Shown: positions 35,501 to 50,500 of the stretch, one piece after another
How positions within the stretch are numbered: the stretch's first letter is position 1
Layout of the letters: the number at the start of each line of letters is the position of its first letter
NCBI GenBank assembly: GCA_028753945.1
Contig: JAPNXP010000011.1
Span: forward strand, 4,836,001 to 4,900,000
Direction: 5' to 3'
DNA length: 64,000 nt
DNA from: Hexactinellida sp. DTS-2022
Lineage: Eukaryota > Porifera > Hexactinellida
The notes under the pieces: model-generated
Seen by the model: the letters and a program-made list of their open reading frames with translations, nothing else
Told to the model about the DNA's origin: nothing
Database searches by the model: none
Made by a program: the position numbers and the translations under genes

Positions 35501-38500
35501 AAGTGACTCCGGTTAATACGAATTCCGGATAATACGAACATTTTAAGACGGTCCCCTGGTGTTCCTATTAACAGAGTATACTGTATATCTTAAATGTACT
35601 ATGGATACTAACCATGTTTCTATAGGCTAGCACAGTTTGCCCAGTTAACCACCAACATGAGATTTGGGGATATCCTGGATCCCTAGGCGGGCTAATGGGT
35701 GCTGTTGTTGTTTTCTCAGAGGCGTTAACACAACAACAAATCAAGCAAATACACTCAAAAGGTACAAACGATTTATCAACTTTCCATTCGTGTTCTATGA
35801 CAGCAGAACTCGGCTCCCGATTGGTTGTTTTCTATCATCCAGCTGCCTGCATTGAGGAGAAGTGCCAGGTAGTTAGCCAATCATATTGTAGAGTTATGTT
35901 ATATGCATGGTATTTATCTTGTTATGCACTATATTTGTATGCAGTTTGTTTGTATAGTTTGTTTATTTATTTAATTATTAGTTAATTAGTTACAGTAAAA
36001 CCTCCAAAAGTGAACACCTTCAAGAAATGAACAATTCCAAAATATAACACTTTTTCTCGATCCCAAATTTCCCCATTGCTTTAGACACACGTTATGATAA
36101 ATAACGACAAGGTGAACACCTCTCAAAAGTAAACATTTGTCTGGTCCCCAGGGTGTTCATTTTCTAAAGGTTTTACTGTATTTATATTCATGATATTATT
36201 TATAGTATATATTAACAGGATTTATCGCCAAACCATATTTATCCGGACCAGAAATTGACGGGTAAATTTCTTGGACAGAGTTACACGACTCACGATATTC
36301 GTTATATTATTAATCACGTTGGAGGGGTAGAACTTCTGTTCCCTCTTTTGGAGAATGTTTTGTTGCCCCAATCGATTGTTTACACCGGTGGTAGTAAACA
36401 ACAACAAACACTCGTAAACAACAAACAATATAAACCGCAGAATTCTACGGATTTAGATATAGAGCCTTTGATATCAACAGGTTTGTTTATAATGAATAAG
36501 CAGTTTAATTCGGTGTTGTTGTTGTTATTGTTGTTTACCAATTAAAGGTGAATTCCCATTGGCTTTCAGAAACAACCTTGGTCTTGCTGGTAATTTTTTC
36601 TCAAACTCAGTTGACAACCTAGTTACCAATCCGGCGCAAAGCTATTTGCCAAACGAACAGAAGAGTACAAGTCTCGATTTCCTACAAAGTCCCCTGTCCC
36701 CCCCTCCACATATAAAGGTGATTTTATTGCGTTTTTTAAAAGAGCATCCTTATATGTAGACGGTCTATAAAAGCCCATACAAATAAGCCAAAACTTTGTA
36801 GACCGTCTATAAATTCTGTAGACCACTTGCCCTGTTTTTTATTGGTAATACTATTACTAATCTATATGTAAGAAAAACTGGTCTAGAAATAGACGGTCTA
36901 CATATAAGTTATCTCTTTTTAAAACTAGTTAGTAGTGTAAATAATGCATTATCACAATTCTCTAAAATGAAATTTTGAATTAGATATTCATGGTCTAATA
37001 GTGAATCCATACTAGATTATGTAAAATCTAGCAATTTACTAAATTTGGCATTAATAGTCTAATTAAACTCTACTCTATTAGTGCACAAATTATGCCACAA
37101 TATCGATTTAATTATTTTTCTATAGATTTTCAAATTATTAGTCCATTTTGACCTGTTGTATGACAGTTAAACTAAATATCCATGGTTATAATAATACAAG
37201 GTAGTTTAATTGTCATACAACAGTACTAACGATGTTCCATACTATTTAACCTATATTTGCTATCTTTAAGACATCTCTGCTAAAAAGGAAACTTACCAAA
37301 ACTCGCTCCAATCCTCCTCTCTCAAAAACCGACAAAGTTATTTCCTCTCCCAACCTGAGACCCACTGAGAGGAACCAATCAGAAGCAAGCTTTAATGACC
37401 ACAGGTGAGCATACCTAGCAGCCATACTGTTGCTAGGTTTGTATTCGTAACGTTTGAACACATTACATTATCTGCGTTAATAAGTGATTACTATCCATTG
37501 TCCGTTAATACGAATGTTATTATAGTATCCATTGTCCGTTGATACACATGTTATATACAATAAAACCTCGTTAATACGAACACCAACTGACGTTAAAATC
37601 CCATTGAATAGCCCTTGTATAGACCTGAATTTTGTGGAACTGTTTGTTCGTAATAACCGTGTTCCTACTAACGAGGTTCTACTGTAAATGTAACTAACTA
37701 ACTACTAACTGAAGTCTGCATTAAATAAGTGATTACTATCCATTGTCCGTTAACACAAATGTCATTATACTATCCATGGTCCGTTAACACAGTATAACCC
37801 CTGTCTATTTAGCCACAGGGACTTCAGGAACAAGAACAGCATGCCTATGCAGGTGCGGAGGGAGCTAAGCGGAACCGAGGATTCAGAGGAGGTTACGGAA
37901 CTAAATCCGAAACTGAAACTAATCCAACAATTCCCTGAGATCCTACATGGCAACGGAGATATGGAAGGAATGCGGGCCCCGGCTATTAAAATACAAACTA
38001 TAAACAGAAAGAATATTAACAAGAGCCCCTCTATAGCCTCTATGAAGTTCAGGTATTTGTTGTTGTTTGTTTATTTATTTATTTATTTGTTGGTTTGTTG
38101 TTTATATTTGTTGGTTTGTTTGTTTGTTTATTGGTTGGTTGTTTATGTGTTTGTTTGTTTGTTATTTTGTTTATTGGTTTGTTGTTTATTTATCAGTTGG
38201 TTGGTTGTTTTTTGTTGGTTTATTGGTTTAATTTTTGGTTAGTTGGTTGTTTATGTGTTTGTTTGTTGGTTTGTTTGTTTGTTTATTTGTTGGTTTGTTG
38301 GTTTGTTTATTTGTTGGTTTGTTGGTTTATTTTCTTGTTTGGTTAATTGTTTGGTTACTTGTTTATTTATTTATTTGTTTGTAAGCACCTTCCATGCTCA
38401 GAAACTGTCCTTATAGAGGTGTTAGTTAACTAAAGTTTACTTCCAATTGTAATACTGTATAGTTCATATTAAAGCCGGAAAAGAACCAACATATACAAAC

Positions 38501-47500: not shown

Positions 47501-50500
47501 CAGCTGATAACAGAGAATTGGTTTTGAAATCAGAAAAGCTAAGCAAGAAGTTGGATAAAAAGAAAAATGAGTTGGAAATTGAAAAAACTAGTTTGTTGAC
47601 TTGTCGCGAATTGGTGGAACTTCTAAATGCAAAAAATATCCAACTGGAAAATCTCACTACGCATAATATGGATAAACATTTGAATAAGGAGCATAATACC
47701 GACAACATCGACTGTTTACTAGAAGCAAAAGATAAACAAATATCAGACCTCAAAACACAGATTATATCCTTGCAATCTCTACATGAACATAAAGACTCAC
47801 AAATAGAAGAGTTAACAAATGAAGTGGAACAGCTGAAATGCGCTAATATTGATTTGGAAAATGTCAGAAGTTTGCTACAAAACCAACTCAGTTCGACTCT
47901 CGATCGAAATTACGGAATTTCAAAATCGAAATCCAATACACCTTCAAGACGGTCCCTATCAAGTTTTCTAATTTCTACCGATGAGAGTATTTCTCTAATT
48001 TGAGACGCTCTCATTCAGAACAGGCCAGTCAGCCACCGGAACTAACACCTCCTATAGTTCCAATTCCAAACACAACTGGAAAGTCATCTTATAAGATACA
48101 AATAAGACCTGGTATTGTTGTTGACACAGTTAAACTTAAGGTGTTACCTTTCCCAAGAGATCACCTAACAAATCAGATTATTTGTAGGATTAACAAGAAC
48201 TTTGAATTGGGTGCCCTAATGACAATATTTGATGCGCAAAATATATCTAATAAGAAGGTAGTTACGGCTATGTACATTGGAATGCAGCTGTATAATCCTG
48301 TTGGCGACTCTAATGGAGAATTCCGGGGTAAACGCTTTTTCGAGTGTGAACCGAATTATGGCATATTTGTGCCGTTTGAAGATGTCCTTGTACCAGTACA
48401 ATAATAACACTATATTCATATTGTAACACCTTTATTGTCTTGTGTTTGTAAACTTACTAACTTGATTATTGTACTGTTGAACTCTGTTAAATCCCTATGC
48501 CATTGAAGTTGTATTTTTATTGATTTAATATGCTATGTGATATACAGTCGACTCCGCTTAATAGAGCCACCGGTTAATAGATTTCTCCACTTAATCGGGT
48601 CAAAATTCACAGGATTTATAGGTCGGAATTACATTTGGTTTAAAATATTTTCGGTTAATAGATTTATTTGCTTAATCGGGTCAAAGTAACCTGGTTCCGA
48701 GTTGACTATTAAGCGGAGTCGACTGTACTTTGTGATATATTAATTTATTGTTTATTGTTATTGTCAATTGTTATTGCTAATTGTTGTTGTTGTTGTTGTT
48801 TATTGTTGTTGTTTATTTAGTTCTCTAAGGGAGAGGAGATCACCTTTCGGTTCCTCAAAGTCTCTGAAACCAACATTCCAGTCCTACGACCTCTACAACA
48901 CAACGACAACAACAACAACAAACAGCAATACGAACACTTCAGTGATACTAGCTCCAAACCCTGAGGACGTACACAACTTTGATACACTAACTTCTTATCT
49001 GGCTTCTTCCCCCCCTCCTAGTGATCCGCACCAACTAACGCCAAGTGGTTTCTTTAGATTGCTACATGCCTTCCTATTGCATCTCCCGTCTAACCAACAG
49101 AAGTTCTATGACGTGTTGGGGTCTGCCACTATTGCCGCTCTGCTGCAGAAGCTACCCGCAACCATGATGGACATTGGTATGTACACTAACTTACTACGGT
49201 ATAAGTATAGGCAGATTGGTAGCTGTGTAATAATTTATACAGCCATTTGTAAATACGCTCCTAATCCTGGTCTGATCCAATATTAATACGCCTAAATCAC
49301 AAATTAATGTCAAGGTATAGGAGAAGATTGCAAATTTTCGTGCTCCTAAATTAAAATTTTGCAAAAATCATGCTCCAAAAGGAGCGTCTCGCGCCTGGAT
49401 AATTCCTTGACTGGAATGTACACTAACGTCCTACGTTATAAGTATAGGGACATTCGTATGTACACTGAGATTATACATTTAATTTACTTATTGTATAAGT
49501 TATTATTCATATACAGTGAACTCTCGTTATAACGAAGTGCCTGTAAATCCCTTCGATATAAGCGGATAATAATTAATGCATTTAGTGCTCTAGGGGGAAT
49601 ATCCATTTTGTTATACACGATTATTTCGATATATCCGACTTGGTTATAACGGGAGTTCACTGTATTATAGATTTTTTCATTTTCTCCTAACGAAATCTAG
49701 GACACGTTATACCTTGAATAATACGATTTGTTATTATTGTTATTGTTTTATATGCAACTTGGCAATTTTATGATGTATATTTATACTTAGGATAGTCAAC
49801 AGACTTCGCTAATATTGTTGTTGTTAGTATGTACTTATGTTTCCCCTACCTAGATACCTTTGACTCAGTTAGGAATTTAACTCACTACTTATTACAATTC
49901 GGTTTCGATGACCCAACTCTTACACAGGATTTGCTGCGTAACTTAATTATGGATTTCAAACTTTGGTCCCGTTCTTGTTTTGAAGTTCGAGTGGACCATC
50001 TACAGTTGGTTTGTACTTTTCTTAAGCAGAGAAAGGACGAATTACGTTGTGATTACGGGATTAAGTATTTCCTGAATGTAATACGCCGATATTACACCTG
50101 TGAATCCACTTTCACACCTCGAACTGATCCGACTGATGCTGTTAAGATTTCCCAGAAGGAAAACGAGTGTTTAGTGGGCGCACTTATGAATATAATTAAG
50201 TTCTACATGCGAGACAGTTTGGAAAAGGAGGAGTTCGATGTAATACTAGCTTTCCTTGTGTCTGTGAGGGATACCATTCAACTAGAAGCGTTGCTAAGGA
50301 AGATACATCAGCTGTTGGCCTCGGGGGAGGGACAGGGGACCAAACAGCTGACTGAATTTCTTGTGCCGCACGGACACTGGTTACTGGTGCTGCTGGAAAA
50401 CGATAGCGCCCAGGTAATGTGGAACTATAAAGTGTTGTATTGGAACTAATGATAGGATTGTTATATAGTCAGGTATGCTTATTACGAACAAGCCCTATGG

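What the first reader, a model, noticed from the sequence alone, without database searches (positions are those of the whole stretch)
38053..48820. Four-gene CAP-Gly-like coiled-coil family nested in one neurobeachin intron
One 10.8-kb intron contains four intronless paralogues on both strands, each with a heptad-rich region and a C-terminal domain matching the CAP-Gly pattern (VG-x-x-LYNPVG-[NDS]-[SN]-[DN]G...[RH]FxCEPNxGIFVP). CAP-Gly domains are usually N-terminal or internal. The Lys of GKNDG is changed in all four. Vertebrate NBEA and LRBA introns host MAB21L1/2, an unrelated family, so hosting of intronless genes in this locus appears to have arisen more than once. I know of no described family with this architecture.
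Basis: partly seen in the sequence, partly recalled or inferred. Interest (0 to 1): 0.8.

Follow-up and report, generated by a model that had tools for sequence, protein, structure and literature searches.

The report
CAP-Gly genes nested in neurobeachin intron
One intron of an animal's neurobeachin gene shelters a small cluster of related genes whose proteins end in an unusual version of a known tubulin-tail-binding domain; they belong to a wider family in the same genome, and one of them carries a second domain that our searches matched to nothing known.

Summary
A 10,768-bp GT-AG intron (38053-48820) splits the DUF4704 region of a neurobeachin/LRBA-type host and holds four paralogues, two per strand. 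All four C-termini pass Pfam's CAP-Gly cut-off, and profile-profile comparison aligns the whole domain to ordinary CAP-Glys. Corrections: gene 4 is not one open frame (unproven short intron, or frameshift); heptad periodicity is consistently supported only in gene 1; gene 3 is a recombinant of gene-4-like 5' and gene-1-like 3' DNA. Loss of the GKNDG lysine is not special: 6 of 15 ordinary CAP-Glys found here lack it, 3 of them with the same loop type, and human CEP350, the best PDB match, has GNNNG. New: the four belong to a clade of at least 12 divergent CAP-Glys in this genome; all 12 lack the aromatic Trp/Phe kept in 13 of 13 ordinary rows. Gene 1 also has an N-terminal domain found at 12 other places, ten of them on contig C1; Pfam and PDB sequence searches found no credible relative. 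Most likely these are cytoskeletal adaptors with a retuned tail-binding groove; that function is inferred. New variant of a known kind; nesting itself is ordinary.

The parts
38053..48820 (+). host intron (10,768 bp, GT..AG) splitting the DUF4704 region of a neurobeachin/LRBA-type gene
   Evidence: DUF4704 profile 17-48 upstream (36216-36542), profile 64-297 downstream in the joined model
38732..42349 (+). gene 1: 1205-aa single ORF; C2H2-like CxxC..HxxxxC, Pro-rich stretch, N-terminal domain 'NTD', heptad-periodic region, C-terminal CAP-Gly
39476..39778 (+). NTD of gene 1, about 100 aa; relatives at 12 other places in the genome; no Pfam match for this copy, no PDB sequence match for the 9-row profile
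41981..42346 (+). gene 1 C-terminal CAP-Gly region (GNSDG)
42788..44233 (-). gene 2: 481-aa single ORF, polar probably helical region + C-terminal CAP-Gly (GNSNG)
45003..46757 (-). gene 3: 584-aa single ORF; 5' block 94.6% like gene 4, 3' blocks 93.7% and 90.8% like gene 1
47374..48404 (+). gene 4: N-terminal frame 47374-48003 and CAP-Gly frame 47985-48401 (GDSNG) out of register; spliced by a short intron or frameshifted
46758..46784 (-). 27 bp directly upstream of the gene 3 ATG, beginning TATAAATA, identical to the 27 bp upstream of gene 4
47347..47373 (+). the same 27 bp upstream of the gene 4 ATG
36216..36542 (+). host ORF upstream of the intron, start of DUF4704
   Evidence: 19.2 bits, below the 22.9 cut-off on its own
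48821..49176 (+). host exon directly after the intron (start fixed by the AG; end at the next GT, 49177, read by eye)
49796..50446 (+). host ORF with DUF4704 (47.3 bits)
56561..56977 (+). host PH_BEACH (76.6 bits)
57148..57759 (+). host BEACH domain, first part (203.4 bits)
61196..61765 (+). host NBCH_WD40 propeller (100.2 bits)

Best explanation
The four nested genes are a local cluster of a wider family of proteins that end in a divergent CAP-Gly domain; the fullest architecture is NTD - long helical region - C-terminal CAP-Gly. Shown: CAP-Gly homology over the whole domain; one host gene; at least 12 divergent CAP-Glys in this genome on one side of a well-supported branch; a recombinant gene 3 made of its neighbours' sequence. 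Inferred: a founder without introns in its coding sequence (gene 1-like, closest to C5:960k) entered the neurobeachin intron by retroposition or intron loss from intron-bearing C1-type relatives, then spread in place mainly by DNA-level duplication. Mechanism (inferred): the helical region pairs two chains; the paired C-terminal CAP-Glys grip short C-terminal tails (tubulin, EB or other partners) through a groove whose recognition loop reads G[NDT][SC][ND]G and whose Trp/Phe has become Tyr, Ile or Met; where present, the NTD carries a second binding function. They would act as cytoskeletal adaptors with retuned, probably weaker or different, tail specificity.
For: CAP-Gly. Clade: 12 divergent rows against 13 ordinary rows, support 99/98 on the core and 100/97 with flanks; 2 of the 15 ordinary matches (C6_661a, C6_663) were left out as partial. 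Counted from the rows printed: Lys of the loop absent in 12 of 12, position 3 S in 10 and C in 2; Trp before VG absent in 12 of 12 (Tyr 6, Ile 5, Met 1), whereas the 13 ordinary rows have Trp 9 or Phe 4. The K and N of GKNDG serve EEY/F binding in CLIP-170 (PMC9062740, passages). Purifying selection: dN/dS 0.21, 0.39, 0.63, 0.39 and 0.41 in the 5 comparisons obtained. Mosaic gene 3. NTD in the same ORF as, or on the same strand within about 2.5 kb upstream of, a divergent CAP-Gly for 5 of 12 CAP-Glys: gene 1, L015, C1:251k, C1:75k, C1:61k. A 52-nt intron inside the NTD at C1:249672-249723.
Against: No expression, structure or binding data. Both AlphaFold jobs were of low confidence (mean pLDDT 36.1 and 42.0). 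The loop change is not confined to the family: 3 of 15 ordinary CAP-Glys here have the same loop type (C1_8959 and C1_10535 GTSNG, C18_1854 GDCDG) and only 5 of 15 have Asn at position 3, so the loop may be freely variable in this animal. Pairing is weakly supported outside gene 1. Intron loss against intron gain is not polarised. Gene 4 may be a pseudogene. Of the four nested genes only gene 1 has the NTD, and 8 of 13 NTD places have no divergent CAP-Gly next to them. L014 is a long branch whose place is unsure.
Confidence: 0.45

Rival explanations
1. The domain keeps the ordinary CAP-Gly job: it binds EEY/F tails of tubulin and EB proteins despite the changed loop, as a plain +TIP or centrosomal protein.
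For: Glycines and the F-C motif are kept in the four nested genes. Family-type loops also occur in 3 of 15 ordinary CAP-Glys of this genome. The best PDB match of the 12-row profile is CEP350 with GNNNG, a microtubule-associated protein (PMC4357431 and PMC2586089, passages).
Against: K and N of GKNDG are both changed in 12 of 12 and the groove Trp/Phe in 12 of 12. CAP350 binds microtubules directly through its N-terminal domain (PMC4357431, passages). T. brucei TBCB, with a changed position 3, showed no binding to a tubulin-tail hexapeptide by ITC (PMC3806363, passages).
Confidence: 0.28
2. The nested copies are decaying relics with no function.
For: Gene 4 is out of frame; a related copy at C15:3597281 has a stop and a shifted frame.
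Against: Three long intact ORFs and dN/dS below 1 in 5 of 5 comparisons obtained, including the gene 4 CAP-Gly (0.39, 0.41). The gene 3/gene 4 N-terminal ratio, 0.63, rests on few changes (3.5 synonymous, 9.5 non-synonymous).
Confidence: 0.12
3. The nested genes arose by repeated retroposition rather than DNA-level duplication.
For: Three have no intron in the coding sequence, whereas C1 relatives are split by introns. Gene 1/gene 3 similarity ends about 25 bp after an AATAAA (42521-42526; block end 42551), where a transcript could end.
Against: Genes 3 and 4 share 27 identical bp upstream of the ATG starting with TATAAATA, which a transcript would not be expected to carry if it is a TATA box; gene 3 is a mosaic of its two neighbours. 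No poly(A) tract follows the gene 3 block in the 80 bases printed. Poly(A) and target-site duplications were not otherwise tested.
Confidence: 0.12
4. The 'intron' is really the gap between two separate host genes.
For: The upstream DUF4704 piece alone is below its cut-off (19.2 against 22.9 bits).
Against: DUF4704 starts upstream and continues downstream of the intron; joined open frames score 77.8 bits in two stretches against 47.3 for the largest single ORF. The order ConA-like, DUF4704, PH, BEACH, WD40 is that of neurobeachin (order recalled).
Confidence: 0.03

Closest known systems
CEP350/CAP350
   Same: best PDB-sequence match of the 12-row profile (2coz_A, E 7.6e-10); its loop also lacks the Lys (GNNNG in that alignment)
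   Different: CEP350 is a single very large centrosomal protein (size recalled); the PDB entry is the CAP-Gly domain only, so the rest was not compared here
CLIP-170/CLIP-115, dynactin p150Glued, Bik1
   Same: CAP-Gly plus coiled coil; PDB-sequence matches
   Different: CAP-Gly at the N-terminus (placement recalled), GKNDG in CLIP-170 (PMC9062740, passages)
TBCB and KIF13B
   Same: C-terminal CAP-Gly; both matched by sequence; a Ubl + CAP-Gly gene of TBCB type is in this genome
   Different: ubiquitin-like or kinesin N-terminal parts; neither was called by Pfam in the nested genes
MAB21L1/MAB21L2 nested in NBEA/LRBA
   Same: genes nested in introns of the same host family (PMC1784063, passages)
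   Different: unrelated protein family; no Mab-21 match in this genome (no positive control)

Membership tests
CAP-Gly domain (PF01302) | profile score over the curated cut-off | tested here: met
   4 of 4 nested C-termini, 33.3-43.1 bits against 26.5; 12 of 12 divergent members, though L015 as a whole ORF scores 25.5, just below,
CAP-Gly domain (PF01302) | homology over the whole domain, N-terminal half included | tested here: met
   hhalign 99.2%, 91 columns, template 1-93; control 0.1%. Pfam alone matches profile 24-65 in the four nested genes
CAP-Gly domain (PF01302) | GKNDG recognition loop (usual, not obligatory) | tested here: not met
   G[NDT][SC][ND]G in 12 of 12. Of 15 ordinary matches 9 have Lys, 1 Arg, 5 neither; 3 have the family-type loop
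CAP-Gly domain (PF01302) | small beta-barrel fold | tested here: inconclusive
   AlphaFold2 with 4 rows, mean pLDDT 36.1
EEY/F tail-binding +TIP | binding to tubulin/EB tails | not testable with these tools
   needs a binding assay
neurobeachin/LRBA (host) | DUF4704, PH_BEACH, BEACH, NBCH_WD40 in order on one strand | tested here: met
coiled-coil protein | heptad periodicity of hydrophobic residues | tested here: inconclusive
   gene 1 met (0 of 2000 shuffles), genes 2-4 not by the same test; best-window test 24, 21, 142 and 4 of 500
retrocopy | no introns, no parental promoter, poly(A) and target-site duplication | tested here: inconclusive
   no introns in the ORF of 3 of 4; 27 bp with TATAAATA shared upstream of genes 3 and 4 argues against, the end of gene 1/gene 3 similarity near an AATAAA argues for; target-site duplications not tested

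The most novel reading that the evidence does not exclude
A lineage-specific family pairs an undescribed N-terminal domain with a terminal CAP-Gly whose groove has been re-tooled to read a tail other than EEY/F; it expanded in a C1 cluster and independently settled in the neurobeachin intron, the same host whose introns shelter MAB21L genes in other animals.
Probability: 0.2. Interest if true: 0.6.

Novelty: new variant of a known kind. Interest (0 to 1): 0.42.

Why it matters
CAP-Gly domains are well-known readers of tyrosinated tubulin tails. A natural clade of at least 12 in one genome, all with a changed reading loop and without the groove Trp/Phe, beside ordinary CAP-Glys some of which share the loop but keep the aromatic residue, would be a ready test of how that specificity evolves. 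The NTD is a candidate new domain. The locus also suggests that neurobeachin introns host unrelated genes in different animals. If the changes are neutral, it is an ordinary lineage-specific gene family.

Tried and rejected
AlphaFold2 on the four nested CAP-Glys and on the gene 1 NTD alone gave low-confidence models, so no fold search was run.

NTD identity: a resemblance in spacing to AMPK-type carbohydrate-binding modules was a thought from memory. Pfam (9 members scanned; three unrelated families, one member each, best E 0.013) and PDB sequences (0 matches at E up to 10) did not support it, and it was dropped.

Pfam's Fe_hyd_lg_C match on the gene 4 N-terminus (23.2 bits against a cut-off of 22.1) was judged spurious, from helical composition; this was not tested further.

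Species: among the 20 of 396 papers listed, demosponge assemblies with 18 chromosomes appear (Petrosia, Crambe, Diacarnus), none of 112.4 Mb; the organism is not identified. 'Sponge-like' is inference.

Mab-21: no match, but the control set rang nowhere, so absence is not shown.

Changed on checking: the best explanation went from 0.5 to 0.45 and the novel case from 0.25 to 0.2, because 3 of 15 ordinary CAP-Glys share the loop type; the ordinary-function rival went from 0.25 to 0.28 for the same reason; the retroposition rival went from 0.08 to 0.12, because the gene 1/gene 3 similarity ends near an AATAAA.
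Full report
Setting. The window is G000:C3:4836001-4900000 of a 112.4-Mb genome in 18 contigs.

Host gene. On the + strand lie, in order, a ConA-like region (34748-35425, 21.1 bits, below the 27.6 cut-off), DUF4704 (starting at 36216-36542 and continuing at 49796-50446), PH_BEACH, BEACH and NBCH_WD40. The GT at 38053 and the AG ending at 48820 bound a 10,768-bp intron whose flanking exons join in frame. Joining the neighbouring open frames raises DUF4704 to 77.8 bits in two stretches, against 47.3 bits for the largest single ORF, so the domain is split by this intron and the host is one gene.

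Nested genes. Genes 1, 2 and 3 are single ORFs of 1205, 481 and 584 aa. Gene 4 is not: its frame stops at 48001-48003 while its CAP-Gly lies in another frame from 47985. Of 16 GT..AG joins that restore the frame, none has a GTRAG donor; joins of 53 and 56 nt fall near the size of a 52-nt intron inferred in a family relative at C1:249672-249723. Gene 4 is therefore spliced or frameshifted; I cannot tell which.

Domain. All four C-termini pass PF01302 (33.3-43.1 bits, cut-off 26.5), but only over profile positions 24-65. Profile-profile comparison with 13 ordinary CAP-Glys of the same genome aligns the whole domain (99.2%, 91 columns; control with the NTD 0.1%). Gene 1 alone matches 38 PDB sequences at E up to 1, of which I take 37 to be CAP-Gly proteins (a few carry only hypothetical or RIKEN names, so this is partly recalled); the other is 5jpq_b. 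The 12-row profile matches 37 at E up to 0.01: CLIPs, TBCB, dynactin, CYLD, Bik1, KIF13B and, best, CEP350. AlphaFold with four rows failed (mean pLDDT 36.1).

Family. The Pfam search of the genome scored 30 candidates and returned 27 CAP-Gly matches; such counts are lower bounds. Twelve of them, the four nested ones and eight at C1 (four places), C5, C7 and C10 (two), form one side of a branch with 99/98 support against 13 ordinary rows on the core domain (2 partial ordinary matches left out) and 100/97 with flanks. In all 12 the loop is G[NDT][SC][ND]G and the Trp before VG is Tyr (6), Ile (5) or Met (1), counted from the rows printed; the 13 ordinary rows have Trp (9) or Phe (4) there. The loop alone does not mark the family: of 15 ordinary matches 9 have Lys, 1 has Arg and 5 neither, 5 have Asn at position 3, and 3 (C1_8959, C1_10535, C18_1854) have the family-type loop. 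A thirteenth, broken copy lies at C15:3597281.

N-terminal domain. Gene 1 residues of about 235-350 match 11 other places at E up to 1, ten on C1 (49-81 kb and 249 kb) and one on C2; the three weakest (E 0.02-0.2) score 44-60 bits with a profile seeded by gene 1 and seven of the others, and that profile also finds L015 on C5 (E 4.2e-9), making 12 other places. In gene 1 and L015 NTD and CAP-Gly share one ORF. At C1:249-252 kb they sit in consecutive open frames on one strand, with a 52-nt intron inside the NTD; at C1:75-78 kb and C1:62-64 kb they lie on one strand about 2 kb apart. The other 8 of 13 NTD places have no divergent CAP-Gly next to them. Searches of Pfam and PDB sequences found no credible relative; the single-sequence fold was poor (mean pLDDT 42.0). 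Genes 2, 3 and 4 show no NTD.

Origin of the cluster. Gene 3 is a mosaic: a 260-bp 5' block matches gene 4 at 94.6%, while two blocks (414 bp, 93.7%; 698 bp, 90.8%) match gene 1, where they lie 1.3 kb apart. The gene 3/gene 4 block begins exactly at TATAAATA and its first 27 bp, upstream of the ATG, are identical. The gene 1/gene 3 block runs about 200 bp past the stop and ends about 25 bp after an AATAAA. The first point favours DNA-level duplication, the second could also suit a copied transcript; with the mosaic I favour DNA-level duplication and recombination inside the intron after one entry. Entry of the founder by retroposition is plausible because C1 relatives have introns, but the direction is not shown; this genome also has very long open frames elsewhere (3465 and 3333 codons around BEACH domains), so an intronless ORF is weak evidence.

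Selection. dN/dS was 0.21 and 0.39 (gene 1/gene 3, two blocks), 0.63 (gene 3/gene 4 N-terminus, few changes), 0.39 and 0.41 (CAP-Gly of genes 3 and 1 with gene 4) (two further comparisons not obtained).

Helical region. Autocorrelation of hydrophobic residues supports heptads in gene 1 (0 of 2000 shuffles), not in genes 2-4 (499, 1030, 477 of 2000); the best-window test gave 24, 21, 142 and 4 of 500. All four regions are low in Pro and Gly (1-4%) and polar (56-59%), consistent with long helices.

Function. In CLIP-170 the K and N of GKNDG serve microtubule tracking and EEY/F binding (PMC9062740, passages); T. brucei TBCB with Gly at position 3 showed no binding to a tubulin-tail hexapeptide by ITC (PMC3806363, passages). 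With both K and N replaced and the Trp/Phe gone in 12 of 12, ordinary EEY/F binding is probably weakened or redirected. I therefore favour paired adaptors with retuned tail recognition; this is inference, and the loop's variability among ordinary CAP-Glys here counts against it.

Context in print. MAB21L genes in NBEA introns: synteny reported as conserved in all metazoans of one study except the fly (PMC1784063, passages). Nested intronic genes are frequent in a ctenophore of similar genome size (PMC8527503, passages). The rows listed by paper searches for CAP-Gly in sponges, its GKNDG loop or C-terminal coiled-coil architectures (12 of 171, 15 of 50, 10 of 750, 7 of 7; open-licence text) showed no description of this family.

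Verdict. A real, well-observed cluster in a neurobeachin intron; a new variant of CAP-Gly proteins, with one candidate new domain; function unproven.

Noticed in passing
L015 (C5:958000-966500), ORF 2472-5909(-): The closest single-ORF relative outside the window carries a long array of a 13-residue repeat close to EIIQKEIPQPLNE between its NTD and CAP-Gly.
   Followed up: no
L013 (C10:302000-311900) and C15:3597281-3597520: Two convergent genes join a different N-terminal region, weakly similar (E 0.004 or worse) to many other ORFs of the genome, mostly of 418-482 codons, to a C-terminal divergent CAP-Gly; a broken copy lies on C15.
   Followed up: partly
C16:5153259-5154101 and C16:5084295-5085077: BEACH domains inside open frames of 3465 and 3333 codons: very long genes without introns over that stretch.
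   Followed up: no
window 5699-6910 (-): 404-codon open frame with POU (117.7 bits) and homeodomain (63.6 bits), no intron within.
   Followed up: no
window 26638-27900 (+): 421-codon open frame with NHL repeats upstream of the host exons found.
   Followed up: no
window 44381-44577, 46874-47033, 48543-48727: Three short elements with terminal inverted repeats (TACAGT..ACTGTA type in the last two), non-autonomous transposon-like, between and after the nested genes.
   Followed up: partly
L016 (C18:1850000-1856500), ORF 2368-5244(+): 959-codon open frame with EF-hand matches (below cut-off) and a C-terminal CAP-Gly with GDCDG; it groups with ordinary CAP-Glys.
   Followed up: partly
L034 3768-4811(+) (C1:247767-248810): MATH/TRAF-type open frame (105.5 bits) upstream of an NTD-CAP-Gly gene on the same strand.
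   Followed up: no
window 38822-38848 and 38879-38944: Gene 1 begins with a run of nine Gln and a C2H2-like CxxC..HxxxxC pattern that Pfam does not call.
   Followed up: no
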